Positions 8,416-48,471 of a stretch of 64,000 nt of DNA are shown here, one piece after another; the first letter of the stretch is position 1; each line of letters opens with the position of its first letter. The translations under genes were made by a program, and so were the position numbers. The notes beneath the pieces were generated by a model that was not told the origin of the DNA, made no database searches, and saw nothing but the letters and a program-made list of their open reading frames with translations. Source of the DNA: Arthrobacter psychrochitiniphilus (GTDB taxonomy: Bacteria > Actinomycetota > Actinomycetes > Actinomycetales > Micrococcaceae); NCBI RefSeq assembly GCF_003185915.1, contig NZ_QHLZ01000001.1:558001-622000 (forward strand), read 5' to 3'.

Positions 8416-8492
8416 GTTGAAATCTCCGTAGGTGGCTCGATGATGGCGACACATAAAGTTTAGGCCACGTAAGCGCCGGTAGGATCTCAATC

Positions 8493-10064: not shown

Positions 10065-10120
10065 CCCCGCGGCTGCCCTAGGCCCTCTGCACTAACCGCC
10101 CTCCCGCAAGGAAGAACACC

Positions 10121-24201: not shown

Positions 24202-25806
24202 TCAGGTGCAGAGGAACACGCCGGCACGGTAACCGTAGTCGGCTTCCAAGGTGTCCACCCCGTTCGGGTTGTGGCCCGTCAGAGCTTCCTGGATGACCTC
24301 AGGCGGTGCCGGGAACTCCGCATTGAGATGACGCAGCGCCCACGCGTTGGACGTGAAGGCCCATTCGAACACCAGCAACGCCCCAATCACGGCAGCCCAC
24401 GTCAGCACATGAGCCGCCGTCCACGGGATCTCCCGGTTCAGCGGCGCCATCACCATGGAGTGAGTGCTGAGCATGGCAAATCCAGCCGCGAAGAAGCCGG
24501 CAAAAACGGCGGCTTCAGTGGCTCCGAAGGAGACACCCGACCGGATGAACCAACGGCTGCGCAGCATGAACTGCCAGTAGATAGCCGCATTAATTATGGT
24601 CAGTACCGTATAAAGCCACAGTGCAGCCAGCGTCCACCACGGCACATCCTGAACCATAGGCGGGACCAACAGCGTCCCTATCAGTGCCAACACTGCGATC
24701 AAATTCGGTGGGATGCCAATAAGTATGCGGGTCCGGCGGGCGGCCCTCGGCGTGGCTGCGCCGCTGGCCGCCGTCTCATCAACCATCCACTGCGGCAGCC
24801 TCTTCAAAGCCGGGGCCGAACTCCCAGACTCAGCTACCCCACTCACAGTGGCAAGGTTCACGGCTGCGCCCGCCTGCGCAATGCCGGCGCGCGCTCCGGC
24901 AACTGTACCGTCCGGCTCCGTGCCGGGCCGGGCCACCAAATCCTCTTCGGAGGCGTGCACACCCGGCACCGGAAGATCGGTGAAGTGTGCAAATTTCTGC
25001 CCCACATAGCGGCGTTCAAGCAGGATCCGTTCCTGAACAAAGGGACGTTCGGGGTCAACCCACACGTCAAACTCATTGCCTATGGCCGGCGCCCACACCG
25101 TGTAGTCAAAGAAACGAATCCTTGAAGTCTCCATCCTGCCTTGAATCAGGTATTCCACATCCACGTGGAACATGGCTCGGTTGTCCAGAAGAAATTTCTC
25201 GTTCGTCACAGCCACTACCGTGCCTACGGTGTGTTGGCCGCTGGCAATGATATCCCAATGAATTCGGTGTTCTTCTCTGGCCTTGAGCCACATAATCCGC
25301 GCCAGCCGTAGGACCTTGACACTCCAAACCAGCAAGGGCAGAGACAGCCCAATCAGCAGCAACATCTCCAACCAATCACCCGAGACTGCACGAATGATCG
25401 CCGCCGCCACGGTCCCCAGAAACAGTCCTACCAGCACCGATGCTTGGGCGATTCGCCGGCCCCGCTCCGGGACCACGGCGCGCCCAGCGTGCGCTGAAAC
25501 TACTTTGATGTCCCCATAGCCCAGCACGTGCATGACGTCCTTGCCGATCTCATGCCCGATCCGGACAGCTCCCACCACACCAATGACAAAGAGGAGGGCC
25601 GGCAGGAAGTGACTAACGTCTTCAAAGACGCGGCTCATCTTGACAGGCGAGAAGAAGCCCAACATGGACACTGCCAGCGCCCACAGGAACACCACCAGGG
25701 CGCAGGCGCGCCACGTCTTCACCACGTAGCCAGCCCACACCACGGGGGACGTGGGCACGGGAACGGTTTTTGCCCCTAGCACGGCTCGGGACATGGGATA
25801 CGCCAC
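24202..25806 (-). CDS. Large membrane protein of unknown function
   Basis: 534 residues with two blocks of membrane segments (about 25-180 and 385-495) around a soluble centre. The centre (about 200-275) alternates beta-strand-like segments such as MFHVDVEYLIQG and ETSRIRFFDYTVW, resembling DUF3592-type inserts, followed by a long Ala/Gly/Ser-rich linker. GTG start at 25806 preceded by GGAGGGGGGA; an ATG four codons later is possible. Nothing shows what it does. Its start faces the helicase-nuclease remnant just upstream. Confidence 0.75.
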   Translation of the reverse strand: MAYPMSRAVLGAKTVPVPTSPVVWAGYVVKTWRACALVVFLWALAVSMLGFFSPVKMSRVFEDVSHFLPALLFVIGVVGAVRIGHEIGKDVMHVLGYGDIKVVSAHAGRAVVPERGRRIAQASVLVGLFLGTVAAAIIRAVSGDWLEMLLLIGLSLPLLVWSVKVLRLARIMWLKAREEHRIHWDIIASGQHTVGTVVAVTNEKFLLDNRAMFHVDVEYLIQGRMETSRIRFFDYTVWAPAIGNEFDVWVDPERPFVQERILLERRYVGQKFAHFTDLPVPGVHASEEDLVARPGTEPDGTVAGARAGIAQAGAAVNLATVSGVAESGSSAPALKRLPQWMVDETAASGAATPRAARRTRILIGIPPNLIAVLALIGTLLVPPMVQDVPWWTLAALWLYTVLTIINAAIYWQFMLRSRWFIRSGVSFGATEAAVFAGFFAAGFAMLSTHSMVMAPLNREIPWTAAHVLTWAAVIGALLVFEWAFTSNAWALRHLNAEFPAPPEVIQEALTGHNPNGVDTLEADYGYRAGVFLCT

Positions 25807-25833
25807 GGCTCCCCCCTCCAGTTGGCTGAACTT

Positions 25834-26054
25834 TCATTGTGCCCATGGGCGCCGGTGATGTCGAGTTCGGTCAGAGCTCGGCGAGTCGCCAGGTCCTGTC
25901 CTCGCCCGCGCCCCAGACGCCGTTGCGGCGGCCGCGATGGCGTCCTGCAAATGTGACAGCTGACCTGCCGGATCCCGGTACCAGCTCAACCACCACACAC
26001 GGAACATGCTCCAGCCCAGTCCGGCGAGCACCGATTTGCGCAGCCGGTCCCGAT
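25834..26054 (-). pseudogene. C-terminal remnant of a DUF4011-type helicase-nuclease
   Basis: On minus this reads DRLRKSVLAGLGWSMFRVW then WLSWYRDPAGQLSHLQDAI. That is the pattern of the Vsr-like (MTES_1575/DUF559-type) nuclease tail ending very large DUF4011/DUF3320 SF1 helicases (R-DRLR-x-VL-x-LGW-x-RIW-S-T-DW-x-x-P). The frame is closed by a stop just upstream (TGA before the DRLR segment) and no helicase motifs precede it, so only the tail survives. A matching N-terminal scrap lies at 33990-34211 in the same orientation. Coordinates are approximate. From 26055 to 26457 no gene is seen. Confidence 0.5.
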
Positions 26055-26457
26055 TTCCTCAAGACCATCCGCCCATCCCTATATCTCGCCACCCGAATAT
26101 CATCCTTCACCCATCGGAATCAATAGGATTCCGGACCAAACCCCGTTTATACCCCCACAGGACTCAAAATAAGCGCGAACTTGGGTCTAGTAGGAGGCCG
26201 CGACCTTGCAACTATCCGCGAGTCAAGGTTTGGCTCTTCCTACTCACTTCTACGCAAGTCTTCTGCGCAAGTTCAGGCTCTATCTGGCTTCATTTTCACC
26301 ACAGCGGGTCGGGGAAGTTGGTCACGCGGCTTAGCGGCCAAAAACCACGGCCATTGACCTTAAGGCTAGTTGCAGCTCCCCTGAAGCGAGTCAGCTTGTT
26401 CAGACTGCTAGCCTACTACCAGCGCGTCACAGATGACGCTTCAAATGGAAGGCTTCA

Positions 26458-28917
26458 ATGGTGCAAATTCTCCCTTTGGCCCACACTGCCGTGGGCGAAG
26501 TTCCGGAATTGCTGGAGTTTCTCTCACAAGCAGGAATCTCCTTGGCACCACATGTGGCTGCAGCTTTGGTCACAGACCTAGCCTCAGACATTGAAGCTGT
26601 ACTTGAGGTGGCTAGAGCCCTCACCCCCTCCCAGCTTTCCGGCCACTCTGCACTCCCAGACCCGCTGCCTTTGATGCCAGGGCTAAGGGCGCGGATAGGT
26701 GCCGCCGGTGACGAGCTCGACGCCGAAGACCGAGCAGGCCTGCTGGCTGCGGCAATCTGTGTCGAGGACCGCACCGACGTGCTTCTGGAACAGCAGCAAG
26801 TCACCATGAGCGAACTCATAGCCAGCCGGGGGGGCACCCATCTGCTCTTCGTGGCAGGACATTTTTCCTTTGTTGACCCCCGCATGCGTATATGGGTCCA
26901 TGGTTCGGCAACCCTAGCCGAACGGACAAACGCCCACATCGAGATGCAGCGCGCTTACACCGCCATGGGGGATATGGACAAAGCGATCTGGCACGAGTCA
27001 CTGGCGACCCTTGAGGGTGATAACCTGCTTGTCCCATCGCTGCTACGCCTCTCTCGCAAAGCGAACGCGGCTAACAATGCAGTCTGGGCGCATGCCATTG
27101 CCCGCGAAGCTGCCAGTCATGCCGTGGGTGCTGAATTATTTCAAGCACAGCTATGCGCTGGTGAGGCCGCGCTCAACCTTGGGCAAGTGGGCGACGCCGC
27201 CACTTGGCTTGGTGGAGCCTTGTCATCTCCGGATGTGTTGGTGGCTGCCCGGGCACTGCCGGCATTCATTCACGCCGAGTCGCTCTTGGCAGGGGAGGCG
27301 CCCACCGTGGCCCTAGCTCGCTACAGTGAAGCCTTCCTCAGCCGAGCCCAGGCCCTGGATGCGGCGGGGTTCGCTACCGTTGCCCGCCAGGTTGCCAAGG
27401 CCACTGGGTTGGCAGCCGGGCTGTGCGCGGCACGGGGCATGCTCGAGGAGGCCGAGGGGCTATTAACCATGGCTGAGCGGCTTGTGGAAGTTCACAAGAT
27501 TGACGGGCTACCACTCTGCGCAGCACGGCTCTGGTGCGCGAACTTTGGCGGACCCACCATTGAGCCGGAATACGCCTGCAGGTGCCGCGGGTGCCTTGAC
27601 GGCCTGCCTGATAATTCCGGTGCGCGCGTGGTTATGGAGGCGTTGACGCTAGGACTTGATGACGATCCCTACGCGGGTCTGCGCTTACTAAAAGAGGGTC
27701 CAGAAGCCGGTCGGTCTATGACGGTAAGGAACCGAGGCGGTGGGCTGCAATGGGCACCAACACCGCTGGGACTTGCTTACGGGGCAGTCGTGGCAGCGTT
27801 ACTTCAGCTATGGCTCGGAGATGTCTCACGAGCAGCAGCCGAACTAGGGCGAGCGGCCGCGTCCGTGCCCGTGGGCCTGCCATTTTTCGGCCTCGGTGTT
27901 ATCGTAGCGCGGCGACTTGACGTGCTCACCACCGGGCAAGTGGGCACCGTGGCCCATGCCATGGAAGCTAGCTATCCGGCCGGTAGCTCTGCCTTCATTC
28001 GCACCGGTGATCTCATGGACCGGACGTTGAGTGCATATCTGGATGGCCGGATCGAAGAAGCCTCCACTTTGGGCAGACTGGCTGCTGAACGCTCGTTGCG
28101 TGGTGCCGCGTCGCCACTGCATGTCCCTGGCTTTGATGAGATGACACCGCACCAGAGTGAAGCGGGTAGTGCTGGGGCCAGGGTGCACGATGATGGCATC
28201 AACGGACCACTGATGCCATCTGGCCACCGCCGGGCCAGCTCCGCCCGCATGGCTCTTTGCGCCACCAGCGCCTCCCGTTTTGCCAAGGACTATGAATACG
28301 CAGAGAGAGTCAGCGTGACGCTGCGGTCCCAATATGAACGGGCCCGCACGGAATTCGTCATTGGCCGGACATGTCTAGAACACGGTACGCCCGGCGTTGC
28401 CCGGGAACACCTCGTGGTGGCTGCCGATCTCTTCCGGGAAATCGGTGCCCTGGCGTGGCTGCGCTGCGTAGAAAACACTCTCAGCAATATGCCGGAGCCG
28501 CCAAGCCACCTCGATGCCCCTACGTTGGAACCGGATATACCCACGGAGACGGTGACCATCAGCGCCGCAGCTGCACCGCGGGTAGCCGCGGGCTCGAAGG
28601 AAGCTTTGGCACACTCCAGCGGCCCTCAAGGAGGATCTTTGGCATCAGCTAAGTCCGTGAACGTGCGCGGGGACGGACCTCTGCAACGCTTCCGCCAAGC
28701 GTGGGGTGAACAGCTGACCGAGAGGGAAATGGAAGTAGCCATGTTGGTTGTTGATGGTGCGTCAAACAGGCAAGTAGCGGCACAGTTGCATGTTTCTGTA
28801 CGCACGGTGGAAGTTCACGTGGGCCGCATCTTTGCCAAGCTCAGTGTCCGTTCCCGTGTGGAGCTAAGCGTGTTGGCGCACCGTATGGGCAGCGAATGGA
28901 TACCTGCTTGTACGTAG
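26458..28917 (+). CDS. LuxR-family transcriptional regulator lacking a P-loop
   Basis: 819 residues. C-terminal LuxR HTH (about 742-805): LTEREMEVAMLVVDGASNRQ, then VAAQLHVSVRTVEVHVGRIF and AKLSVRSRVELS. The long middle is Ala/Leu-rich helical, TPR-like. Large LuxR regulators normally start with an AAA/STAND ATPase of about 300 residues; no Walker A (GxxxxGKS/T) is visible here. The ATG has GGAAGG five bases upstream, so the shorter start looks genuine. A Cys cluster, YACRCRGCLDGL, sits near 378. Encoded 125 bases ahead of chitinase genes on the same strand, so chitin-responsive control is likely but unproven. Confidence 0.82.
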   Translation: MVQILPLAHTAVGEVPELLEFLSQAGISLAPHVAAALVTDLASDIEAVLEVARALTPSQLSGHSALPDPLPLMPGLRARIGAAGDELDAEDRAGLLAAAICVEDRTDVLLEQQQVTMSELIASRGGTHLLFVAGHFSFVDPRMRIWVHGSATLAERTNAHIEMQRAYTAMGDMDKAIWHESLATLEGDNLLVPSLLRLSRKANAANNAVWAHAIAREAASHAVGAELFQAQLCAGEAALNLGQVGDAATWLGGALSSPDVLVAARALPAFIHAESLLAGEAPTVALARYSEAFLSRAQALDAAGFATVARQVAKATGLAAGLCAARGMLEEAEGLLTMAERLVEVHKIDGLPLCAARLWCANFGGPTIEPEYACRCRGCLDGLPDNSGARVVMEALTLGLDDDPYAGLRLLKEGPEAGRSMTVRNRGGGLQWAPTPLGLAYGAVVAALLQLWLGDVSRAAAELGRAAASVPVGLPFFGLGVIVARRLDVLTTGQVGTVAHAMEASYPAGSSAFIRTGDLMDRTLSAYLDGRIEEASTLGRLAAERSLRGAASPLHVPGFDEMTPHQSEAGSAGARVHDDGINGPLMPSGHRRASSARMALCATSASRFAKDYEYAERVSVTLRSQYERARTEFVIGRTCLEHGTPGVAREHLVVAADLFREIGALAWLRCVENTLSNMPEPPSHLDAPTLEPDIPTETVTISAAAAPRVAAGSKEALAHSSGPQGGSLASAKSVNVRGDGPLQRFRQAWGEQLTEREMEVAMLVVDGASNRQVAAQLHVSVRTVEVHVGRIFAKLSVRSRVELSVLAHRMGSEWIPACT

Positions 28918-29042
28918 TGACACCTATGCGTGTTTGTGCTGATGTGCGGTGGCCATGGCCATGGATAGCCTTGGGCCAGCAAGCGTAGGAGCCTACTTCC
29001 TGCGCTGCAGCGGTCTCATTCGCACAGCAGAACAGGAAATTC

Positions 29043-31685
29043 ATGCAGACACCAACATTGCCAAGATGGCGGCATCGCAGTGCCGCCATCGTGACGGGGT
29101 TCGCCCTCGTTGCCTCAATAGGCATAACGACTCAGGTGGCTTATGCCTCCCCCTCTGGGACCACCACAACCAAGGCGTGCGCCACTCCGTGGGCCCCGGC
29201 CAGCTCGTACAGTTCAAACGCAGTGGTCTCCCACCAGAGCGTGAACTATTCTGCCAAGTGGTGGACCCAGAACAACGTCCCGGGCTCTGATCCTTGGGGC
29301 CCGTGGACTAGTCAGGGCACATGCGGCACCGTAACCGATCCGACGCCTACGCCGACGCCAACGCCGACGCCAACTGCGGTTCCGACCACAACTCCCACTG
29401 CTGTTCCGACAGCAACCCCAACCACGCCGCCACCCACAACCCCTGCGGCCGGAACCCCTTGGACATCAAACCCGGATGAGAAGTGCCGGCCCGACGGCCT
29501 GTACCAAACCCCCGGCGTCAATGTGCCGTATTGCTCCGTCTATGACGAAGCCGGCAGGGAACTCCTTCCCAATGGACTAGAACAACGCGTGATCGGCTAT
29601 TTCACCAGCTGGCGCACCGGTGAGAACGGCGCCCCACGCTACCTCGCCAGTGACATCCCGTGGAAGAAACTCAGCCACATCAACTACGCCTTTGCCCACA
29701 TTGACAAGAACAACAAAGTCTCCGTGGGTGCAGAGACACCCGGTAATGCGGCCACTGACCTGACGTGGCCCGGTGTTGCTGGCGCAGAGATGGACCCAAC
29801 GTTGCCTTACAAGGGGCACTTGAACCAGCTGAAGAAGTTCAAGAAGGAAAACCCTGGAGTGAAAACTCTGGTTTCAGTTGGTGGTTGGGCCGAGACCGGT
29901 GGTTACTTCGCTGCTGATGGCACTCGTGTTGGGGATGGCGGCTTCTATACGTTGACCGAATCCCAAGCAAAGATCGATACCTTCTCCGATTCAGCCGTGG
30001 AATTCATCCGCAAGTATGGCTTTAGTGGTGTGGATATCGATTACGAATACGCCACTAGCAACTCCAAAGCGGGTAACCCGGATGACTTTGCTATCTCGGA
30101 GCCTCGCCGAGCCGTGCTCTTTGAGAACTACATGAAGCTAATGAAGACTCTGCGCGAAAAACTGGACAAAGCCAGCGTTGCTGATGGCACTTACTACCAG
30201 CTCACAGTTGCCGCTCCGGCCTCGGGCTGGCTGTTGCGTGGCATGGAAGCGCATCAAGTTGTTAAATACTTGGACTTCGTTAACATGATGAGCTATGACT
30301 TGCACGGTGCATGGAATAACTTCGTGGGCGGCAACGCGGCGCTCTTCGACGATGGCAAAGATCCAGAGCTCGCCGCTGGTGGCGTGTACAACGCCTATAA
30401 GGGCATCGGCTACTTGAACTCTGACTGGGCATACCACTACTTCCGCGGCGCAATGCCAGCTGGTCGCATCAACCTAGGAGTGCCTTTCTACACTCGCGGC
30501 TGGACTAACGTACAGGGCGGAACCAATGGCCTCTACGGTAGCTCCGTGTTGGCCGACCAGAACAAGTGCGCTCCCGGAACCGGGCCTAAAGCCGGCGGAA
30601 ACTCCAAGTGTGGTGACGGTGCCGGGGGCATCGACAACCTGTGGCATGACAGCGATCCGATGGGTGGCGAATTGGCCGCCGGGGCTAACCCAATATGGCA
30701 TGTGCTGAACCTGCAAAAGGGTGTTGTGGGCGATTACGCGGCTTCCTATGGTTCACCGACGGGTGCTCTCAAGGGCACTTACACACGCCATTTTGATAAC
30801 GTCACCAAAAATGAGTGGTGGTGGAATGACACCACAAAGACATTCCTTAGCGGCGACGCCGATCAGGCGATCCAAGCCAAGGCAGACTACGTGGCAGATA
30901 AGGGCCTGGGCGGGGTCATGATTTGGGAGCTCGCCGGTGACTACGAGTACAACGCCAGCAAGGGCCAGTACGAGATGGGCTCCACACTGGTAAATAGAAT
31001 CCATTCAACCCTGTCCGCGTCCAAACCCTATGGGGCCACCAAGGCCAACGTGAAGATGCCCACCAAGGCCATTGACCTTGGTGTTGAACTGAAAAACTTC
31101 GCCTTGGGTGACAACAACTACCCCATCAACCCAGAAGCGCACTTCACGAATAACTCCAAAACCACCATCCCGGCCGGTGCAACTATCACCTTTGACAGTG
31201 CAACAAGCGATACGGGTGAGATGAAGGAACAGAGCGGCTGGTCTATCACAAAGGATTCCAGCGATCACACCGGCAGTAACGTCGGCGGGCTCAAGGGTGA
31301 CTTCCATACCTACACCATCAAGGTACCCGCCGGGGGCATTGCGCCCGGCGCTACCGTCAGTACCAAGCTGGCATGGACGCTACCTACCTCGATGATTTCC
31401 AACTTCCGGGTCAGTATTGGTTCAGAACAGTATGCTCTCCTGACCGATTACCCTCGTGGCGTGAGCGTGGTGGAGCCCTCCGCGGGCACTGGCGGCGGCA
31501 ACGGCGCGGGCCCGGTTGAGAGCTGTAATGGTGCTGTTACATGGTCCGCTGCAGCGGTCTACACCGGCGGGGCTGTTGTAGCTCACGCAGGTTCCAGTTA
31601 TAAGGCCAAGTGGTGGACCCAGGGTGAAGTCCCCGGTTCCGGCGCTGCCAACGCTTGGGGTTCTCCCATCCTGTGCGGCAAGTGA
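29043..31685 (+). CDS. Secreted GH18 chitinase with two CBM5/12 modules
   Basis: 880 residues. Signal peptide with AYA-S cleavage near residue 36; N-terminal CBM5/12 chitin-binding domain (about 44-94, aromatic AKWWTQNNVPG, GPWTSQGTC); Thr/Pro linker (98-138); GH18 barrel (about 180-660) with LVSVGGWAE and catalytic segment SGVDIDYE at 328-335 where Glu335 is the acid; a beta-sandwich domain (about 680-820); then a second CBM5/12 (CNGAVTW to the end, AKWWTQGEVPG). The first Asp of the usual DGxDxDxE motif is Ser328. AGGAAATTC precedes the ATG. Expected to degrade chitin outside the cell with the second chitinase. Confidence 0.93.
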   Translation: MQTPTLPRWRHRSAAIVTGFALVASIGITTQVAYASPSGTTTTKACATPWAPASSYSSNAVVSHQSVNYSAKWWTQNNVPGSDPWGPWTSQGTCGTVTDPTPTPTPTPTPTAVPTTTPTAVPTATPTTPPPTTPAAGTPWTSNPDEKCRPDGLYQTPGVNVPYCSVYDEAGRELLPNGLEQRVIGYFTSWRTGENGAPRYLASDIPWKKLSHINYAFAHIDKNNKVSVGAETPGNAATDLTWPGVAGAEMDPTLPYKGHLNQLKKFKKENPGVKTLVSVGGWAETGGYFAADGTRVGDGGFYTLTESQAKIDTFSDSAVEFIRKYGFSGVDIDYEYATSNSKAGNPDDFAISEPRRAVLFENYMKLMKTLREKLDKASVADGTYYQLTVAAPASGWLLRGMEAHQVVKYLDFVNMMSYDLHGAWNNFVGGNAALFDDGKDPELAAGGVYNAYKGIGYLNSDWAYHYFRGAMPAGRINLGVPFYTRGWTNVQGGTNGLYGSSVLADQNKCAPGTGPKAGGNSKCGDGAGGIDNLWHDSDPMGGELAAGANPIWHVLNLQKGVVGDYAASYGSPTGALKGTYTRHFDNVTKNEWWWNDTTKTFLSGDADQAIQAKADYVADKGLGGVMIWELAGDYEYNASKGQYEMGSTLVNRIHSTLSASKPYGATKANVKMPTKAIDLGVELKNFALGDNNYPINPEAHFTNNSKTTIPAGATITFDSATSDTGEMKEQSGWSITKDSSDHTGSNVGGLKGDFHTYTIKVPAGGIAPGATVSTKLAWTLPTSMISNFRVSIGSEQYALLTDYPRGVSVVEPSAGTGGGNGAGPVESCNGAVTWSAAAVYTGGAVVAHAGSSYKAKWWTQGEVPGSGAANAWGSPILCGK
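29339..29458 (+). repeat. Low-complexity Thr/Pro linker repeat in chitinase 1
   Basis: Tandem ACG-CC-type triplets coding (TP)n with TAVP units. It joins the N-terminal chitin-binding module to the catalytic domain. Slippage-prone but in frame here. Confidence 0.7.
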
Positions 31686-31740
31686 GGCCTTTCCTGCTGA
31701 CACGGGAAACGTAACACCACAGATCGTGAGCATCTAACAC

Positions 31741-31780
31741 AAAGACGGCGGGGTTCTTCGGAATCTCGCCGTCTTTATGT
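31741..31780 (+). terminator. Rho-independent terminator after chitinase 1
   Basis: AAAGACGGCG ... CGCCGTCTTT perfect 10-bp stem, then TTATGT, about 55 bases after the stop. Confidence 0.8.
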
Positions 31781-31835
31781 CCATGAGTGGGGGGAAAAGT
31801 AGAGGAAACGAAAAAATTCCTGCCATCACGGCAAT

Positions 31836-31853
31836 CTAAGTATTACTACTTAG
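31836..31853. promoter_or_regulatory. Palindrome upstream of chitinase 2
   Basis: CTAAGTA-TTAC-TACTTAG, 7-bp arms, 118 bases before the chitinase 2 start. A possible operator, for instance for the adjacent LuxR regulator. Only symmetry and position support this. Confidence 0.3.
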
Positions 31854-31970
31854 GTCAATGTCAGCGGGAAAAGTATGTGGATCATGCTGATGTGACATGC
31901 GCCACCGACGAATAGCGTTGTTCCTGGACGACGGTGCGATACGCGCACCTCACTGTTCAAAGGACTGCTC

Positions 31971-33704
31971 ATGTCAGAAAAAATCAAACGGCCCAGACGC
32001 CTTACTAAGCTGTGGGCTGCTGTAGCGGCGGGCACCATGGTTGCCGGATTGGCAGGGGGTGTGGGTGCCCTCGGTGCCAATGCTGCACCGCCCAACACCG
32101 CGGCCGATGCCCCCCTCACTTCAACGGTCAACGGCTACCGCAACGTTGGCTACTTTGCACAATGGGGAGTGTATGGACGCGCATTCCAGGCAAAGCAGCT
32201 AGACGTCTCCGGTACAGCCAAAAACCTCACTCACATCAACTACTCTTTCGGTAACATCAACAACCAGACATTGACCTGTTTTATGGCCAATAAGGCGCAG
32301 GGAACCGGTCCCAACGGCTCCGATGGCGCCGGCGATGCTTGGGCAGACTTCGGCATGGGTTATGCGGCCGACAAGTCCGTCTCAGGCAAGGCTGATACTT
32401 GGGATCAGCCTTTGGCTGGTTCATTCAACCAGCTCAAGCAGTTGAAGGCTAAAAACCCCAAACTCAAAGTCATGATCTCTTTGGGCGGCTGGACCTGGTC
32501 CAAGAACTTCTCCAAGGCCGCAGCCACTGAGCAGTCCCGCCAGAAGCTGGTTTCCAGCTGCATTGACCTATACATCAAGGGCAACCTGCCAAACTTCGAA
32601 GGTCGCGGCGGCGCTGGTGCGGCGGCCGGGATTTTTGACGGCATTGACATTGACTGGGAATGGCCGGGCACAAACTCCGGTCTAGAAGGCAACGGTGTAG
32701 ACACCGTCAATGATCGTGCAAATTTCAAGGCTCTACTGGCGGAGTTCCGTAAGCAGCTTGACGCTTACGGCTCAACGAATAATAAGAAGTACGTCCTGAG
32801 CGCCTTCCTGCCTGCTAATCCTGCGGACATCGATGCAGGTGGCTGGGATGACCCTGCCAACTTCAAGTCCTTGGACTTTGGCAGTATCCAGGGCTATGAC
32901 TTGCACGGTGCGTGGAACCCCACGCTCACCGGTCACCAGGCCAATCTGTATGACGACCCCGCGGATCCTCGCGAGCCGAGCAAGAAATTCAGTGCCGATA
33001 AGGCCGTGAAAAAGTACCTTGCAGCTGGCATTGACCCGAAGCAGCTGGGACTAGGGCTAGCAGCCTACGGCCGCGGCTGGACAGGTGCAAAGAACGTTTC
33101 CCCTTGGGGCCCTGCCACTGATGGCGCTCCCGGCACTTACGAAAAGGCCAATGAGGACTACGACAAGCTAAAGACGCTTGGCACGGACCACTACGACGCC
33201 GCAACCGGATCTGCGTGGCGCTATGACGGCACCCAGTGGTGGAGTTATGACAACATGGCCACCACTAAGCAAAAAACTGACTACATTGTCAGCAAGGGAC
33301 TTGGCGGCGGCATGTGGTGGGAGCTCTCTGGCGACCGCAACGGTGAGCTGGTAGGCGCAATGTCTGATAAGTTCCGCGCTGCAGCGCCGGGTCCTGTCAC
33401 TGAAGCAGCACCCCCGTCCACGACGAACCCCACTCCTACTCCTACACCTACACCGACCACTGCTCCGACAGTCACTCCCACTCCTACCCCGACCACCACT
33501 CCGACAGTCACTCCCACAACACCGCCCACAACTCCGCCCGCCGGGTCAGGCTGTGCCGCTCCTTGGAGCGCAACGGCAACCTATCTCGGCGGTTCCAAGG
33601 TGTCCCATGGCGGCATCAGTTACAAGGCCAAATGGTGGACCCTGAATGAGAAGCCCGGCGCTTCACAGTGGGGACCTTGGGAAGCCACAGGAGCCTGCAA
33701 CTAG
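31971..33704 (+). CDS. Secreted GH18 chitinase with C-terminal CBM5/12
   Basis: 577 residues. Signal peptide (basic KIKRPRR, hydrophobic core, ANAA cleavage near 39); GH18 barrel (about 55-460) with VMISLGGWTWSKNF and the complete catalytic motif FDGIDIDWEWPG, Glu230 being the acid; Thr/Pro linker (about 480-520); C-terminal CBM5/12 (CAAPWSATATYLGG, KAKWWTLNEKPG). It differs clearly from chitinase 1 in the barrel, so the two are probably complementary (different subsites or direction of attack) rather than a recent duplication. AAAGGA ribosome site. Confidence 0.95.
   Translation: MSEKIKRPRRLTKLWAAVAAGTMVAGLAGGVGALGANAAPPNTAADAPLTSTVNGYRNVGYFAQWGVYGRAFQAKQLDVSGTAKNLTHINYSFGNINNQTLTCFMANKAQGTGPNGSDGAGDAWADFGMGYAADKSVSGKADTWDQPLAGSFNQLKQLKAKNPKLKVMISLGGWTWSKNFSKAAATEQSRQKLVSSCIDLYIKGNLPNFEGRGGAGAAAGIFDGIDIDWEWPGTNSGLEGNGVDTVNDRANFKALLAEFRKQLDAYGSTNNKKYVLSAFLPANPADIDAGGWDDPANFKSLDFGSIQGYDLHGAWNPTLTGHQANLYDDPADPREPSKKFSADKAVKKYLAAGIDPKQLGLGLAAYGRGWTGAKNVSPWGPATDGAPGTYEKANEDYDKLKTLGTDHYDAATGSAWRYDGTQWWSYDNMATTKQKTDYIVSKGLGGGMWWELSGDRNGELVGAMSDKFRAAAPGPVTEAAPPSTTNPTPTPTPTPTTAPTVTPTPTPTTTPTVTPTTPPTTPPAGSGCAAPWSATATYLGGSKVSHGGISYKAKWWTLNEKPGASQWGPWEATGACN
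33419..33545 (+). repeat. Low-complexity Thr/Pro linker repeat in chitinase 2
   Basis: Repeated ACTCC/ACACC words coding PTPTPTP and TTPTVTP units between the barrel and the chitin-binding module. Confidence 0.7.
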
Positions 33705-33807
33705 GGCATATCTCCTCATGCGGCACAACAGTTGATTACGGTCGAAAGTACGGCTGCTAAGCCTTAGCGTGTGGAAAGTTTTGAAAGAAGTACGTTTATC
33801 CCTCATG

Positions 33808-33845
33808 CCCGGTTCCGGGTAGGTCTTAGACCTCCCGGAACCGGG
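33808..33845 (+). terminator. Strong hairpin after chitinase 2
   Basis: CCCGGTTCCGGG pairs with CCCGGAACCGGG (12 bp), with a second small inverted repeat AGGTC/GACCT in the loop. About 100 bases downstream of the stop. No U-run. Confidence 0.55.
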
Positions 33846-33989
33846 CTGATCGATGTTAAAGGCCTCCTTGGGGAGTGGTTGCCCTCCGCATCCTCAAACG
33901 TGAGCCTATCTAGGGCAAAGTCCCAAGACATCTTCAACGCTGGTGCAGGCGTTTACACACGCTCAGGATCTGAGTTTCATTCGTATCAG

Positions 33990-34211
33990 CTACCGTGGCC
34001 ACATGCATTTACTGGCTGACGGGCACGCCCAACGCCGCGGCACTGGATCAGTGATCTCGGGGTGCTGGAAATTCAGTAGCTTGTGGCGACGCTCCAGGGC
34101 CAGCAGGCCCTCACGCCAGGCCTTCATTTGGCTTTTCCGCTTATTCAGCTGCATCCCTGCCGGCATCGTGTCCACCGCCGTCGGCTCACCGTCCACCCGC
34201 TGCCCACGCAC
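33990..34211 (-). pseudogene. Possible N-terminal remnant of a DUF4011-type helicase
   Basis: A 73-codon frame on minus contains AWREGLLALERRHKLLNFQH, resembling the opening of DUF4011 helicases (WR-x-x-LL-x-L-x-x-R-x-x-LLxF). It then runs into unrelated sequence and a stop. Alone this would be weak; it gains weight because the C-terminal tail of the same kind of protein lies at 25834-26054, in the same orientation and correct order, with the LuxR-chitinase cassette between. 33846-33989 holds no gene. Confidence 0.35.
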
Positions 34212-34340: not shown

Positions 34341-35852
34341 CTACAGGCGCATATCACCGGTTTCAATGTAGCGCTGGTGCCAGGACAGGGCCTCGCCCAT
34401 CAGGTGCGGGGTGTGCTTGCCGTACGAATCCCGTGAGGCGCGGGCAAAGTAGTCCTCGAGCATGGGCTTGTAGTCCGGGTGCGCACACTTTTCGGTGATG
34501 ACGCGGGCGCGCTGCTTCGGCGCCAAACCACGCAGGTCAGCCAGGCCCTGTTCGGTGATGATAAGCATGGTGTCATGCTCAGTGTGGTCCACGTGGCTGG
34601 CCATGGGAACAATGCCGGAGATCTTTCCGCCCTTGGCAGTGGAAGGGGACATGAACGCACCCAAGTAGCCGTTGCGGGCGAAGTCGCCGGAGCCGCCAAT
34701 GCCGTTCATGACGTGTGAGCCAACAACGTGGGTGGAGTTTACGTTGCCGTAAATGTCCGCTTCGATCATGCCGTTCAGGGCAATGCAGCCCAGGCGGCGG
34801 ATCAGTTCGGGGTGGTTGGAAATCTCCTGGGTGCGGAAAACAATGCGCTCACGGTAGAAGTCGACGTTTCGGTTGAACTCCTCAATGCCGGCCTCGGAGA
34901 GGGAGAAGGAGGTGGCCGAGGCGAACGCCAGGGTGCCGTCCTTGATCAGCTCAAGCATTCCGTCCTGGATCACTTCGGTGTACGCCTTCAAACCGCGGTA
35001 TCCACCACGGGACAGTCCTGCCAGCACAGCGTTGGCAATGTTGCCCACGCCAGACTGGAGCGGCAGCAGCTTATCCGTCAGGCGGCCGGTCTTGATCTCC
35101 CCGTCCAGGAAGTCCAGCAGGTGTGAGGCAATCTGGGTGGAGGCCTCATCCGGGGCGGCGAAGGCAGAGAGCCGGTCCGGCGCGTCGGTCTCAACCACGG
35201 CAATGACTTTGTTCATGTCAACGTCCAGGTAGGCCTGGCCAATACGGTCTTCCGGTGCCACGAGCGCGATGGGCTTGCGGTGCGGCGGCAGTGCAGTGCC
35301 GTAGTAGATGTCGTGCATGCCTTCCAGCTGTGCGGATTGCTGCGCGTTGACCTCGAGAATCACGGCGTCGGCCATGTCCAGCCAGGTCTTGTTGTTGCCC
35401 ACCGAGGTGGAGGGAATCAGCGATCCGTCCTCGCGAATGCCCACCACTTCAACGATCGCAATGTTAATGCCGCCGTAGAAGCCGAACCAGGTGTGCTGGG
35501 CAACGTGGCTGAGGTGAATGTCCATGTAGTCGAGGTCGCCGTCGTTGATCCGCTTGCGCAACGCAGGATCGGACATGTACGGCAGGCGCAGTTCCATGCC
35601 GCCCACTTTGGCCAAGACACCGTCCAGCTCAGGTGCGGTGGAGGCGCCAGTGAGGACCTTGATCTTGAAATCAGTTCCGGCGGCGTGCGCGGTTTCCATC
35701 TGTGCAGCGAGCGCCTGCGGCACGGCTTTCGGGTAGCCTGCACCGGTAAAGCCACTCATGGCGACGGTCATTCCGGGCTTGATTAGCGCAGCGGCTGCCT
35801 CGGCCGACATACGCTTTTCCAACAATCCGGCATGGCGAATACGATCGTGCAC
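34341..35852 (-). CDS. Acetyl-CoA hydrolase / succinyl-CoA:acetate CoA-transferase family protein
   Basis: 503 residues of the class I CoA-transferase family that includes Acetobacter AarC and yeast Ach1. Oxyanion loop SGFTGAGYPKAVPQAL near 33-48; the catalytic glutamate is Glu293 in AYTEVIQDGML, aligning with AarC Glu294; SGVGNIANAVLAGLS and the C-terminal ITEQGLADLRGLAPKQRARV also match. Predicted to shuttle CoA between succinyl-CoA or acetyl-CoA and carboxylates, supporting acetate use. Monocistronic, own terminator. Whether hydrolase or transferase activity dominates cannot be read. Confidence 0.92.
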   Translation of the reverse strand: MHDRIRHAGLLEKRMSAEAAAALIKPGMTVAMSGFTGAGYPKAVPQALAAQMETAHAAGTDFKIKVLTGASTAPELDGVLAKVGGMELRLPYMSDPALRKRINDGDLDYMDIHLSHVAQHTWFGFYGGINIAIVEVVGIREDGSLIPSTSVGNNKTWLDMADAVILEVNAQQSAQLEGMHDIYYGTALPPHRKPIALVAPEDRIGQAYLDVDMNKVIAVVETDAPDRLSAFAAPDEASTQIASHLLDFLDGEIKTGRLTDKLLPLQSGVGNIANAVLAGLSRGGYRGLKAYTEVIQDGMLELIKDGTLAFASATSFSLSEAGIEEFNRNVDFYRERIVFRTQEISNHPELIRRLGCIALNGMIEADIYGNVNSTHVVGSHVMNGIGGSGDFARNGYLGAFMSPSTAKGGKISGIVPMASHVDHTEHDTMLIITEQGLADLRGLAPKQRARVITEKCAHPDYKPMLEDYFARASRDSYGKHTPHLMGEALSWHQRYIETGDMRL

Positions 35853-37318: not shown

Positions 37319-38239
37319 TTACTTGGCGCTCTTGTGCTTAATGAAGGTGACCTGCTCCGGGTCCAGGCGTGAGCGCATAACTTCAATGGCTTCGGGGTTC
37401 TGATCCACCATGACAAAGCGGCGGCCCAGCTCCAAGGCGGCGGCCCCGGTGGTGCCACTGCCACCAAAGAAATCCAGTACCCAGTCCCCCGGCTCGGTGC
37501 TGGCTTGGATAATGCGGCGAAGGATCCCGAGGGGCTTCTGGGTGGGGTACCCAGTTTTTTCGCGGCCCATCGGGGAAACAATGGTGTGCCACCAAGTATC
37601 GGTGGGCAGCTTGCCCAGTTCCCGCTTTTCGGGCGTGACCAGCCCGGGCGCCATGTAGGGCTCGCGGTCTACTTCGGTGCTGTTGAAGTAGTAGGTTTTA
37701 GGGTTTTTGACGTAGACAAGGATGTTGTCGTGCTTGGCGGGCCAACGCTTTTTGGAGCGCGCCCCGTAGTCATAGGCCCAGATAATTTCATTGAGGAAGC
37801 ACTCGCGGCCAAAGAGGGCGTCCAGCAGCACCTTGGCATAGTGGACCTCGCGGTAGTCCAGGTGCAAGTAGAGAGTGCCATCGTCCTTCAAGAGACGCCA
37901 TGCTTCTTCTAGCCGGGGCTCCAAAAATTCCCAGTAGTCGCCGAAGGAATCGTTGTAGCTCAGCGTCAAGCCCTTGATGGTTTCATAGCTGCGGCCTTGA
38001 AAACCTACGCGGGAGCCTGTTTCGCTGCGGACGTTGGTCATGTTTTGGCGCGCTTGAACCTTGCCGGTGTTAAAGGGCGGGTCAATGTAGATCAGGCGGA
38101 AACTTTCATCCGGCAGTGTGCCTAAAAAGCTGAGGTTGTCCCCTTCTGCAACGAGGTTCCCACTCTCCGAATGCCACGCAGCTGCCGGCTTTTTAGCCGG
38201 GGTAGCACTCAGGGTGGAATCACTCGCGTCGATTGTCAT
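37319..38239 (-). CDS. Orphan site-specific DNA methyltransferase, beta class
   Basis: 306 residues of the N6-adenine/N4-cytosine methyltransferase type. Catalytic motif IV comes first (IYIDPPFNTG, 53-59) and the SAM-binding motif I last (VLDFFGGSGTTGAAALE, about 254-270), the beta-class order. LHLDYREVHYAKVLLDALFG is also typical. No restriction endonuclease gene is next to it, so it is probably a solitary, possibly regulatory methylase. Target sequence cannot be read. It lies about 4 kb from the defence island. Confidence 0.9.
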   Translation of the reverse strand: MTIDASDSTLSATPAKKPAAAWHSESGNLVAEGDNLSFLGTLPDESFRLIYIDPPFNTGKVQARQNMTNVRSETGSRVGFQGRSYETIKGLTLSYNDSFGDYWEFLEPRLEEAWRLLKDDGTLYLHLDYREVHYAKVLLDALFGRECFLNEIIWAYDYGARSKKRWPAKHDNILVYVKNPKTYYFNSTEVDREPYMAPGLVTPEKRELGKLPTDTWWHTIVSPMGREKTGYPTQKPLGILRRIIQASTEPGDWVLDFFGGSGTTGAAALELGRRFVMVDQNPEAIEVMRSRLDPEQVTFIKHKSAK

Positions 38240-38344
38240 GCTTCAAGGCTAGCCGGGCGGTGGTAGGCCGCGAAATGCAGGGAGTAGGTACAGGCATTGG
38301 GCACTAGGACAGCGCCCAAGCAAAATTCACGTTAGGGTCGATAA

Positions 38345-40840
38345 ATGGGATCGTCTCTAAGTACAGCTCTGACCACCACCAGCCCTGAGCACTCAGGATT
38401 TGTCCAAGTCCGCGGTGCCCGCGAGAACAACCTGAAAAACGTGGACGTGGATGTCCCCCGCGACTCCATTGTCGCCTTCACCGGCATCTCAGGGAGCGGT
38501 AAGTCCTCGCTGGCCTTTGGCACTATTTTCGCTGAAGCCCAACGCCGCTATTTTGAATCCGTGGCTCCCTACGCGCGCCGTCTCATTCAACAGGGAAATA
38601 CACCCCGGGTGGAGTCCATTTCGGGACTTCCACCGGCAGTGGCCATGCAACAGCGCCGCGGAACCCCCAGCACCCGCTCTTCAGTGGGGACAGTAACAAC
38701 TCTTTCAAACTCAGTACGGATGTTGTTTTCTCGGGCAGGTGATTACCCTAAGGGCGCTGAGATTTTGTACTCAGATTCCTTCTCGCCCAACACGGTGGCT
38801 GGCGCTTGCCCGGTGTGCCACGGCTTGGGAACAGCCCACACTGTTACCGAAGAATTGCTGGTGCCGGACCCACACCTCAGCATTCGCGAAGGTGCGGTTG
38901 CGGCGTGGCCCAGCGCTTGGCAAGGTAAAAACCTCCGCGACATTCTCAGCCATCTGGGCTACAACGTTGACGTTCCGTGGAAGAAGCTGCCTAAAAAAGA
39001 ACGTGATTGGATCCTCTTTACCGAAGAGCAACCTGTTGTTGAGGTAACGCCGCAAAGGGACCGGGTGGCCAAACCCTATAAGGGAAAATTCTGGAGCGCC
39101 CGCAGCCATGTTTTACACACTCTAGCCAACACCAAGAGTGCACCTATGCGTGAGAACGCCCTGAGATTCATGCATTCAGGACCCTGCCCCGAATGTGGTG
39201 GGAGCGGGTTGAAAGTGGCGGCCATGGCGGTGACGGTGGAGGGCAAAGACATTTCCGCCATGAATGCCCTGCCGCTGACGCAACTTGCTGAGGTACTGCA
39301 GAGGATCATGACCGGCCCTACTGGCGATGATGGGAGCCGTGAGGCCGTTGCAAGCGCCATTGCCCATGATTTGCACCAGCGCATAACAGTGCTGCTGGAT
39401 CTGGGACTAGGGTATCTGAGCCTGGGCCGCAGCACGCCCACCCTCTCCCCCGGAGAGATGCAGCGCTTACGCATTGCCACCCAGCTCCGTTCTGGACTTT
39501 TCGGTGTCATCTACGTTTTGGACGAACCGTCAGCGGGGCTGCATCCGGCCGACGCCGAGCCTCTGCTGGAGGTATTACAACAGCTCAAACGTTCCGGAAA
39601 TAGCGTCTTCATTGTTGAACACAACATGGACATGGTCCGGCGGGCCGACTGGCTGGTTGATGTAGGCCCCCAGGCAGGTGAAGCCGGCGGCCGGATTGTT
39701 TACAGCGGCCCAGTTCCGGGGATTGCCCATGTTCAAGAGTCAGTCACGCGGCCCTTCCTATTGGAAGGGGCTTCCCCTTCTGCGCCCATAGCGCAGGATG
39801 CTGAAAGGGCTACCGGCACCTCCGCAGTGCGCAGAGATCCCCAAGGCTGGTTGGAATTGGTAGGTATCAGCTCCCACAATCTTGAGAACGTTGATGCGCA
39901 GATCCCTAGGAACGTTCTGACAGCCATTACTGGGGTATCCGGTTCTGGGAAGTCCACGTTATTGCAGGTGCTGAACAGTACTGCTGGCGGCCAGCGCGAA
40001 GGCGATGACTCCGCCCCGGAGGACATTGCGGGAACAAGCGGGTTCGGCGGCGTAGACCGTGTGGTTCCCGTGGACCAGCGCCCCATTGGCCGGACACCGC
40101 GCTCCAACCTGGCTACGTACACAGGAATGTTCGACGCCGTCCGGCGTGAGTTCGCTGCCACACCCGAGGCCCGGGCGAAGGGATTTACCGCGGCCAGGTT
40201 TTCTTTCAACGTTGCGGGTGGGCGCTGTGAAACATGCTTGGGTGAAGGCGCCGTGGCGGTGGAACTACTGTTCCTTCCTGGTAGTTACGGCCCCTGCCCC
40301 GTCTGCCACGGTTCCCGCTTCAATGATGAGACCTTGGCAGTGTTGTACAAGGGAAAGTCCATTGCCGATGTTCTGGCGCTGACGGTGGATGCGGCAGCGC
40401 TGGTGCTCGCGGACATTCCCGCTGCGGCAAGAAGCTTGGCAACCCTACGTGAAGTGGGGCTAGGCTACCTCCGGCTGGGGCAGCCGGCCACGGAACTCTC
40501 GGGTGGTGAAGCACAGCGGATCAAACTCGCCACCGAATTGCAGCGCCCGCGGCGGGGTCACACGCTGTACCTCTTGGATGAGCCCACCACGGGTCTGCAC
40601 CCTGCCGATGTTCAGTTGTTGATGCATCAGCTCAACCGGCTGGTGGACGCCAACAACACTGTGGTGGTTGTGGAGCACGAGATGGACGTGGTGGCAGCCG
40701 CCGATTGGGTCATTGACTTAGGACCCTCGGGAGGGTCCGCCGGCGGCCGCATCATGGCCACCGGGTTACCCGAGGACGTAGCCACTGCTGAGGAAAGCCG
40801 CACCGCACCTTATTTGGCGGCCGCGTTGGCGCGGCGTTAA
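38345..40840 (+). CDS. UvrA-like ABC ATPase (UvrA2 type)
   Basis: 831 residues, about 100 shorter than housekeeping UvrA. Two ABC modules: Walker A FTGISGSGKSSLAFGT (46-61) with its signature TLSPGEMQRLRIATQLRSG and Walker B FGVIYVLDEPSAGLHP; and GVSGSGKSTLLQVLN with ELSGGEAQRIKLATELQ and LYLLDEPTTGLHP. Zinc-binding Cys clusters are present (CPVCHGLG, CPECGGSG, CETCLGEG, CPVCHGSR). The short first insertion suggests the UvrB-binding region is reduced. Such UvrA2 proteins are linked to resistance to DNA-binding drugs. Single gene. Confidence 0.92.
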   Translation: MGSSLSTALTTTSPEHSGFVQVRGARENNLKNVDVDVPRDSIVAFTGISGSGKSSLAFGTIFAEAQRRYFESVAPYARRLIQQGNTPRVESISGLPPAVAMQQRRGTPSTRSSVGTVTTLSNSVRMLFSRAGDYPKGAEILYSDSFSPNTVAGACPVCHGLGTAHTVTEELLVPDPHLSIREGAVAAWPSAWQGKNLRDILSHLGYNVDVPWKKLPKKERDWILFTEEQPVVEVTPQRDRVAKPYKGKFWSARSHVLHTLANTKSAPMRENALRFMHSGPCPECGGSGLKVAAMAVTVEGKDISAMNALPLTQLAEVLQRIMTGPTGDDGSREAVASAIAHDLHQRITVLLDLGLGYLSLGRSTPTLSPGEMQRLRIATQLRSGLFGVIYVLDEPSAGLHPADAEPLLEVLQQLKRSGNSVFIVEHNMDMVRRADWLVDVGPQAGEAGGRIVYSGPVPGIAHVQESVTRPFLLEGASPSAPIAQDAERATGTSAVRRDPQGWLELVGISSHNLENVDAQIPRNVLTAITGVSGSGKSTLLQVLNSTAGGQREGDDSAPEDIAGTSGFGGVDRVVPVDQRPIGRTPRSNLATYTGMFDAVRREFAATPEARAKGFTAARFSFNVAGGRCETCLGEGAVAVELLFLPGSYGPCPVCHGSRFNDETLAVLYKGKSIADVLALTVDAAALVLADIPAAARSLATLREVGLGYLRLGQPATELSGGEAQRIKLATELQRPRRGHTLYLLDEPTTGLHPADVQLLMHQLNRLVDANNTVVVVEHEMDVVAAADWVIDLGPSGGSAGGRIMATGLPEDVATAEESRTAPYLAAALARR

Positions 40841-47519: not shown

Positions 47520-47562
47520 GGCGGCGTCTTTCTGTTGAACGAGCGGGAACCTGGAATTTTCG

Positions 47563-48471
47563 CTAGACAATTTGCAATTGTTGATGAACAGATTGTGCGA
47601 CAGCGTTGGCAACGGAGCTCGGAATGTTTTCGAACGTCCAGCTCCCATCCGAGGTCTTGTCGGGGTGGAACCCGCTACAAAGCGTCAGTGCTTGGAAGTG
47701 CGGCATGGGTAGTGGCAAGCCTTTGTCAACGCGGAGCATACCGATGGGATCGTCAGCATCTTCGGTAATTTGCAGTTCAAAGCACTCTTTGTCAATATCT
47801 ACTCGGGTTAAGCAGACCCCTTCGGCGTAGGTCGTTGAGTACCAAATACCCGATCTCAGCAGCCAGTAAACAGACCGTCCGTTCACTTTCTGTTTGAACA
47901 ATCCATCCCGATGAAAAGTTTCAACGTGCATGAATTTTCCCATGCGTACATTGAACATCTGGACAGGGGAACCTTGTGTGTTTGGTCCCCCTGCTAGAGG
48001 CCCGAGACCAAGCGAAGGGAGATCTTCGGCTATGGACAGCGCGGCACACGATATGAAATCTGCGCCTGAACTGGAAGCAACCTGACGGAGTTCTGCTTCA
48101 TTGTCGTACTCAACGATCAAAGTTCGCGGGTCGCTAAGTGACCCGATTCCAGATCGTGACTGTTCCAGTTTGTGCAAGACCGTATCGGCTTCAAGCCGTT
48201 CTTCCAGTTCAGGCGACCGTTTTCCAACGACAAGTGCAAACGCTGAGGACCCTGGAAGCTGCGTCACCATTGTTGGTCGAATACGCCATTTACCCTCTGA
48301 CCATGATTGGTCCAAGTGCCCGAGTACCTCCAAACGCCAAAGGTAGGATCGAGCAGCTTGGACGTTTTCAGGAGGCACGCCGTCCATCACGGCACCAACT
48401 GACGCGACCACGTCAGTCATACTTCCGTAGCCTCTTGAGCTCAACCACTGTAGAACTAGATCACCGTCCAT
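47563..48471 (-). CDS. Defence-operon protein, 302 aa (DruG position)
   Basis: 302 residues, no recognised catalytic motif. The N-terminus (DGDLVLQWLSSRGYGSMTDV, and RSYLWRLEVLGHLDQSW) looks like a winged-helix domain, with a second part rich in beta-strand (KFMHVETFHRDGLFKQKVNG, SVYWLLRSGIWYS). It starts within the last 11 bases of the 709-aa gene and is followed 43 bases later by the helicase gene, so the three are one operon. Its place corresponds to DruG of Druantia type II; that label rests on position and size, not on recognised sequence. Confidence 0.75.
   Translation of the reverse strand: MDGDLVLQWLSSRGYGSMTDVVASVGAVMDGVPPENVQAARSYLWRLEVLGHLDQSWSEGKWRIRPTMVTQLPGSSAFALVVGKRSPELEERLEADTVLHKLEQSRSGIGSLSDPRTLIVEYDNEAELRQVASSSGADFISCAALSIAEDLPSLGLGPLAGGPNTQGSPVQMFNVRMGKFMHVETFHRDGLFKQKVNGRSVYWLLRSGIWYSTTYAEGVCLTRVDIDKECFELQITEDADDPIGMLRVDKGLPLPMPHFQALTLCSGFHPDKTSDGSWTFENIPSSVANAVAQSVHQQLQIV

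What the first reader, a model, noticed from the sequence alone, without database searches (positions are those of the whole stretch)
25834..34211. LuxR-chitinase cassette appears to have replaced the middle of a giant helicase-nuclease gene
At 25834-26054 lies the tail of a DUF4011-type helicase (DRLRKSVLAGLGW...YRDPAGQL), and at 33990-34211 a segment like its N-terminus (AWREGLLALERRHKLLNF). Both are on minus, in correct 5'-3' order, and flank exactly the regulator plus two chitinases. An insertion or replacement event would explain both scraps.
Basis: partly seen in the sequence, partly recalled or inferred. Interest (0 to 1): 0.6.

Follow-up and report, generated by a model that had tools for sequence, protein, structure and literature searches.

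The report
Chitinase genes inside a broken helicase
In this Arthrobacter-like bacterium a three-gene unit for digesting chitin sits between the leftover pieces of a large gene that some relatives keep whole and that resembles anti-virus defence genes; this looks like ordinary gene turnover at a changeable site, caught with the relics still visible.

Summary
Both scraps are relics of one gene. In 6 of the 22 other genus genomes searched, the two scraps match opposite parts of the same locus-specific helicase-nuclease (open frames of 1,843-1,904 codons in five; in two pieces around an assembly gap in G009). In G001 and G022 it lies whole between the CoA-transferase and the membrane-protein gene. 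In the window about 1,380 codons, including the helicase core, are missing, and a LuxR regulator plus two GH18 chitinases sit there on the other strand. The relic has further internal deletions, and its last ~200 codons are gone too. The cassette is not tied to this site: five relatives carry it near purine genes, four of them with an intact helicase. In the window's own genome the purF slot is empty. G005 has also lost the helicase, with no cassette at this site. So 'the cassette now stands where the helicase stood' is well supported. A single insertion or replacement event is not shown, and whether the cassette came from the purF slot or by horizontal transfer is undecided. Ordinary genome evolution, unusually well preserved.

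The parts
33884..34178 (-). N-terminal relic of the helicase gene (codons 4-45; 80-116 in another frame with a stop; probably 173-199), with two internal deletions
33705..33883 (.). Spacer after the second chitinase, with a strong hairpin (33795-33860 folds at -42 kcal/mol; not listed by the terminator pattern scan); no match to the helicase or to the cassette's flank in relatives
31971..33704 (+). GH18 chitinase (577 aa) with CBM5/12; motif DGIDIDWE; hydrophobic N-terminal stretch like a signal peptide (my reading)
29043..31685 (+). GH18 chitinase (880 aa) with ChiC domain and two CBM5/12 stretches; motif SGVDIDYE
26458..28917 (+). LuxR-type regulator (819 aa): C-terminal GerE HTH, long helical N-terminal part (low-confidence model), no NTPase motif found
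26390..26457 (+). luxR leader that matches the luxR leader of G001, G022 and G005; left limit of detectable cassette homology
26056..26389 (.). Spacer of unknown origin; the query 26050-26457 gave no match in the other 22 genus genomes at E 0.001
25882..26055 (-). C-side relic of the helicase gene: codons 1581-1638, end of the REase_MTES_1575 domain
25807..25868 (-). Conserved leader of the 534-aa membrane-protein gene
24202..25806 (-). 534-aa membrane protein, downstream neighbour of the helicase gene in G001, G022, G009, G002, G013
34341..35852 (-). Acetyl-CoA hydrolase/transferase family protein (503 aa), upstream neighbour of the helicase gene in G001, G022, G007

Best explanation
A locus-specific giant helicase-nuclease gene (DUF4011 - SF1-type helicase - REase_MTES_1575 - DUF3320, similar to anti-phage proteins) once stood between the CoA-transferase and the membrane-protein gene in this lineage. 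It has been lost: codons ~200-1580 and 1639-1840 are gone and the rest is decaying. A chitin-use cassette, a LuxR-type regulator plus two GH18 chitinases, now sits in the gap, on the strand opposite to the lost gene. Relatives keep the same trio near purine genes, so it reached this site as a unit. Shown: the relics, their common origin, the synteny, the cassette's other homes, the empty purF slot here, and loss of the helicase without a cassette in G005. Inferred: that the helicase was dispensable and the cassette settled in it or in its remains, by illegitimate recombination or by import together with its surroundings. The regulator presumably controls the two chitinases (adjacency and shared retention only).
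For: Each scrap matches the same 6 of the 22 other genus genomes, at opposite parts of the same gene, E 1e-7 to 2e-14. No intact copy was found in the window's genome; the only other hit there is a 27%-identical paralogue (1,405-codon frame) whose homologues occur in all 23 genomes. Same gene order MTase - small protein - CoA-transferase - helicase - membrane protein - hydrolase in G001 and G022. Cassette trio between purF and an SCP2-like gene in G001, G022, G005, and in another slot near purC in G002, G013. LuxR at E <= 1e-60 in 6 of 395 sampled family genomes, all in the genus. purF-SCP2 gap of 509 bp without cassette in the window's genome. Helicase relic of codons 1790-1834 and no cassette at the same site in G005.
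Against: No terminal repeat links the two spacers (longest shared word 8 bp) and there is no mobility gene in the trio, so the route is unproven. 334 bp left and 179 bp right of the cassette are of unknown origin. The order of helicase loss and cassette arrival is not resolved. purF, SCP2 and asparaginase of the window's genome are closest to G012 (apart from G005's purF), which lacks the cassette.
Confidence: 0.85

Rival explanations
1. Relocation within the lineage: the cassette sat in the purF-SCP2 slot in an ancestor and moved from there into the helicase gene, leaving the purF slot empty.
For: The purF slot is empty here and filled in G001, G022, G005. The window's cassette falls inside the purF-slot clade, with G005, support 85/88. 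Cassette divergence from G001 and G005 resembles G001-G005 divergence.
Against: The chiB tree alone puts the window's copy outside that clade (65/57). The SCP2 + asparaginase genes beside the purF slot do not group the window's genome with the purF-slot carriers: with six genomes it falls with G002/G013 (85/87), with 21 genomes with cassette-free G012 (98/92). No recognisable scar in the 509-bp gap.
Confidence: 0.35
2. Horizontal arrival: the lineage never had the cassette at purF. The cassette, or the whole CoA-transferase to membrane-protein stretch already in this form, came from an unsampled relative, for instance by homologous recombination in the conserved flanks.
For: purF and SCP2 + asparaginase of the window's genome group with cassette-free G012. 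Tract exchange between species of the genus is demonstrable: a ~2.4-kb purM-purF stretch is 98-100% identical between the window's genome and G005 although eight other compared genes are 65-85%.
Against: None of the 5 other carriers has the cassette at this site. Cassette divergence is old (dS 0.5-1.1 to G001 and G005), so there is no sign of a recent import from a sampled lineage.
Confidence: 0.4
3. One-step insertion-deletion: the arrival of the cassette itself removed the helicase middle, and the other deletions followed. (This is about the order of events and may be combined with either route above.)
For: The relics on the two sides belong to opposite parts of the gene with a single large gap, codons ~200-1580, that the cassette fills.
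Against: The relics also lack codons 46-79, 117-172 and 1639-1840, and G005 lost most of the gene without a cassette here. Neither order of events is excluded.
Confidence: 0.4
4. The two scraps are unrelated chance similarities or come from two different genes.
For: Each matching piece is short (about 37-58 residues), and the N-side scrap has no Pfam hit by itself.
Against: Same six genomes and same gene for both scraps, right order and strand, right flanking genes, scores above all resampled controls.
Confidence: 0.01

Closest known systems
Hhe / ProA / PDC-S37 anti-phage helicase-nucleases (for the lost gene)
   Same: The intact G001 homologue has DUF4011, AAA helicase domains, REase_MTES_1575 and DUF3320 and matches PADLOC PDC-S37 at 1,165 bits and Hhe at 498 bits.
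   Different: Below NCBIfam's cut-offs for ProA (1,130 of 1,500) and Hhe (745 of 2,000). Defence activity of this gene is untested; in the window only relics remain.
GH18 chitinase clusters with a LuxR-type regulator
   Same: Two GH18 chitinases with CBM5/12 beside a LuxR-type regulator.
   Different: The regulator lacks a detectable NTPase and was found only in this genus (6 of 395 sampled family genomes). That chitinase clusters elsewhere have neighbouring regulators is recalled, not tested.
Defence hotspots flanked by core genes (P. aeruginosa cDHS1)
   Same: A variable site between conserved genes; cDHS1 has a large DUF4011 gene at its right flank (two passages of PMC10250203 seen).
   Different: Here the DUF4011 gene is itself the variable part and the newcomer is a metabolic cassette.

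Membership tests
Hhe / ProA / PDC-S37-type helicase-nuclease (intact orthologue, G001) | DUF4011 + AAA helicase + REase_MTES_1575 + DUF3320 architecture | tested here: met
   Pfam hits above curated cut-offs: DUF4011 74.8, AAA_11 65.9, AAA_12 48.6, MTES_1575 94, DUF3320 40.8 bits
Hhe / ProA equivalogs (intact orthologue, G001) | score above NCBIfam equivalog cut-off | tested here: not met
   ProA 1,130.2 of 1,500; Hhe 744.8 of 2,000
Hhe / ProA / PDC-S37-type helicase-nuclease | protection against phage | not testable with these tools
   needs a plaque assay
Hhe / ProA / PDC-S37-type helicase-nuclease (window copy) | intact coding sequence | tested here: not met
   only codons 4-45, 80-116, probably 173-199, and 1581-1638, with frameshift and stop
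GH18 chitinase | Glyco_hydro_18 domain with DxDxE catalytic motif (motif recalled) | tested here: met
   PF00704 at 224 and 264 bits; GVDIDYE and DGIDIDWE
LAL (large ATP-binding LuxR) regulator | N-terminal NTPase with Walker A motif (recalled) | tested here: not met
   no AAA or NTPase hit among the Pfam matches at E 10, no [AG]x4GK[ST]
LuxR-type regulator | C-terminal GerE helix-turn-helix | tested here: met
   PF00196 63.4 bits, residues 752-807
Transposon or integrative element | recombinase gene, terminal repeats or target duplication at the cassette's ends | tested here: not met
   no recombinase among the three cassette genes; longest shared word between 26056-26457 and 33705-33990 is 8 bp

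The most novel reading that the evidence does not exclude
The LuxR-chitinase trio is a small mobile metabolic unit that moves between at least three chromosomal slots in this genus (purF-SCP2, near purC, and the helicase site) without any recombinase of its own, and it preferentially settles in changeable sites such as decaying defence genes.
Probability: 0.15. Interest if true: 0.5.

Novelty: new member of a known kind. Interest (0 to 1): 0.3.

Why it matters
It is a clear case of a metabolic cassette standing in the place of a defence-type gene, with relics of the old gene on both sides and intact comparators in the same genus. It shows how gene gain and loss at one site can be read from short relics that are not open genes. 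It does not reveal a new system.

Tried and rejected
Chance or composite origin of the scraps: rejected. An intact second copy of this helicase in the window's genome: not found; the C32 hit is a 27%-identical paralogue. Decay of the helicase in G009: its two open frames are separated by a run of N (assembly gap), so it is not counted as broken. A scar of the cassette in the 509-bp purF-SCP2 gap: none recognisable; about 350-380 bp of it match the same gap in cassette-free genomes. Terminal repeats between the two spacers: none longer than 8 bp. Origin of the left spacer: query 26050-26457 gave no match in the other 22 genus genomes at E 0.001; that search also missed the luxR leader found by direct comparison, so it is not very sensitive. 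Genome-contig scan with LuxR: one locus, Arthrobacter sp. H35-MC1, whose contig length equals that of G022:C17 (269,487), so G022 is probably that strain; the name is not in the taxonomy copy. Solved-structure search with the intact helicase: SMUBP-2, Sen1 and '5'-3' RNA helicase-like' chains only. Structure model of the LuxR protein: mean pLDDT 54.8, too weak for a fold search, none run. The terminator pattern scan did not list the hairpin after the second chitinase. Papers, seen as search listings with starts of abstracts unless stated: DUF4011 with anti-phage (1 paper, two passages seen), Arthrobacter/chitinase/LuxR (22, 15 listed), Hhe terms (11, 10 listed), PDC-S37 (0), chitinase relocation (1), replacement/remnant/hotspot terms (10, 8 listed), DUF4011 or DUF3320 (4). 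No listed title or abstract start describes this locus; that is only as wide as these searches.
Full report
What was checked. The window is G000:C11:558001-622000 of a 4.05-Mb draft genome in 38 contigs. A genome-contig hit with the window's LuxR protein, very probably genus member G022, is named Arthrobacter sp. H35-MC1, so the window is from Arthrobacter in the broad sense. The names purF, purM, purC, SCP2-like, asparaginase, PhnA-like and metallophosphoesterase below are my reading of translations and come from no family search.

Both scraps are one gene. Each scrap was searched against the 23 genus genomes held (own included). Each matched its own source and the same six others, G001, G022, G009, G007, G002, G013, at opposite parts of the same gene, with E from 1e-10 to 2e-14 for the C side and 1e-7 to 2e-12 for the N side. 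The other 16 genomes had no match at E 0.001. The gene is one open frame of 1,843-1,904 codons in five of the six and is split by a run of N in G009. In G001 and G022 the order is MTase, small proteins, CoA-transferase, helicase, membrane protein, hydrolase, acyl-CoA dehydrogenase, which is the window's order with the helicase in place of the cassette. The other four differ: in G002 and G013 the helicase is next to the membrane protein, but the CoA-transferase is 11 kb beyond the helicase (G002) or was not found (G013); in G009 the membrane protein is next to it and no CoA-transferase was found; in G007 the CoA-transferase is 1.7 kb away and no membrane-protein match was found.

Map of the relic. 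Numbered on the G001 protein, the window keeps codons 4-45 (34178-34053), 80-116 in a shifted frame with a stop (34047-33937), probably 173-199 (33964-33884; E 6e-4 with G009, 0.02 with G001, searching that stretch alone) and 1581-1638 (26055-25882). Missing are 46-79, 117-172, ~200-1580 and 1639-1840. The C-side scrap is the end of the REase_MTES_1575 domain, not the C-terminus of the protein. Controls: in a tblastn of the whole window with seven helicase pieces the lowest E elsewhere is 0.18, and the best score in 400 resampled sequences is 29.6 bits against 39-59 observed.

What the lost gene was. The intact G001 orthologue has DUF4011, AAA helicase domains, REase_MTES_1575 and DUF3320. PADLOC gives PDC-S37 (1,165 bits) and Hhe (498 bits). 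NCBIfam gives ProA and Hhe but below their cut-offs. It is thus a relative of anti-phage helicase-nucleases, not a member of those equivalogs by score, and its activity is untested. The window's genome has a separate paralogue (1,405-codon frame, C32) at 27% identity; homologues at 27-30% over the C-terminal half occur in all 23 genomes. So only the locus-specific gene is lost.

The cassette. 26458-33704 (+) holds a LuxR-type regulator (819 aa) and two GH18 chitinases (880 and 577 aa). The same trio occurs in five other genomes: between purF and an SCP2-like gene in G001, G022 and G005; and in G002 and G013 in a different slot about 8 kb from purF, near purC, between a PhnA-like and a metallophosphoesterase gene. 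The LuxR protein at E <= 1e-60 was found in 6 of 395 sampled family genomes, all of this genus. Four of the five other carriers (G001, G022, G002, G013) also have the intact helicase at its own site; the fifth, G005, has only a relic of it. In the window's genome the purF-SCP2 gap is 509 bp, without cassette, on another contig (C22). Detectable homology of the window's cassette with the others begins 68 bp before luxR. The query 26050-26457 had no match in the other 22 genus genomes, though that search also missed the luxR leader. After the second chitinase there is a strong hairpin (not listed by the pattern scan) and then the N-side relic.

How it came about. The helicase is lost elsewhere too. 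Twelve fetched regions of genomes without the gene were searched for relics: G005 keeps codons 1790-1834 in its 350-bp CoA-transferase/membrane-protein gap, and 11 have none at E 0.01. Some of those 11 regions (e.g. G019, G010, G021, G011) hold only one of the two flanking genes, so the exact site may not be covered; four further genomes (G004, G006, G016, G018) were not fetched. The codons kept by G005 and by the window do not overlap: either two separate losses, or one shared inactivation followed by different deletions. G005's sequence has many ambiguous bases and weighs less.

The cassette tree (first two codon positions, six genomes) puts the window with G005 inside the purF-slot clade at 85/88; chiA and luxR alone agree (86/90, 79/81), chiB alone does not (65/57). 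Synonymous divergence of the cassette genes (dS 0.66-1.09 to G001; 0.50-1.03 to G005) is not above the range of core genes (0.98-2.13 to G001; 0.80-1.85 to G005 with purM and purF set aside) and is like the G001-G005 cassette distance (0.51-1.22). This fits an old relocation or an old transfer, not a recent import. Against a move from purF within the lineage: purF, SCP2 and asparaginase of the window's genome are, G005's purF apart, most like cassette-free G012 (purM less clearly, 76/89 in its tree and not the nearest by identity), and in a six-genome SCP2 + asparaginase tree the window falls with G002/G013 (85/87) and not with the purF-slot carriers. I therefore leave relocation (0.35) and horizontal arrival (0.40) open. 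The order of helicase loss and cassette arrival is also open.

Verdict. The single-event claim is not shown. The kind of event is ordinary for a variable site; what is unusual is the preservation of pieces from both sides of the lost gene.

Noticed in passing
window 42114-48471 (-): A Druantia-type defence pair, DruE type 4 (PADLOC 2,483 bits) and DruL4 (202 bits), lies about 8 kb from the cassette.
   Followed up: partly
L086:~7900-10300 (own genome, C22) against L052 (G005): A ~2.4-kb purM-purF stretch is 98-100% identical in 200-base windows between the window's genome and G005, while eight other compared genes are 65-85% identical. The stretch ends near the start of purF, next to G005's cassette. 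The purF and SCP2/asparaginase trees suggest that G005 was the recipient. G005's sequence holds many ambiguous bases.
   Followed up: partly
L055:9372-11636 (G002): About 11 kb of extra DNA with a transposase-like 754-aa reading frame (my reading of the translation) between CoA-transferase and helicase in G002, another sign that the site is changeable.
   Followed up: no
window 37319-40840: An N6/N4 DNA methyltransferase gene beside an UvrA-like 831-aa ATPase gene. The methyltransferase lies near the CoA-transferase in 8 fetched regions of relatives, with or without the helicase.
   Followed up: no
window 26056-26389: 334 bp between the relic and the luxR leader with no match in the other 22 genus genomes (query 26050-26457); origin unknown.
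   Followed up: partly
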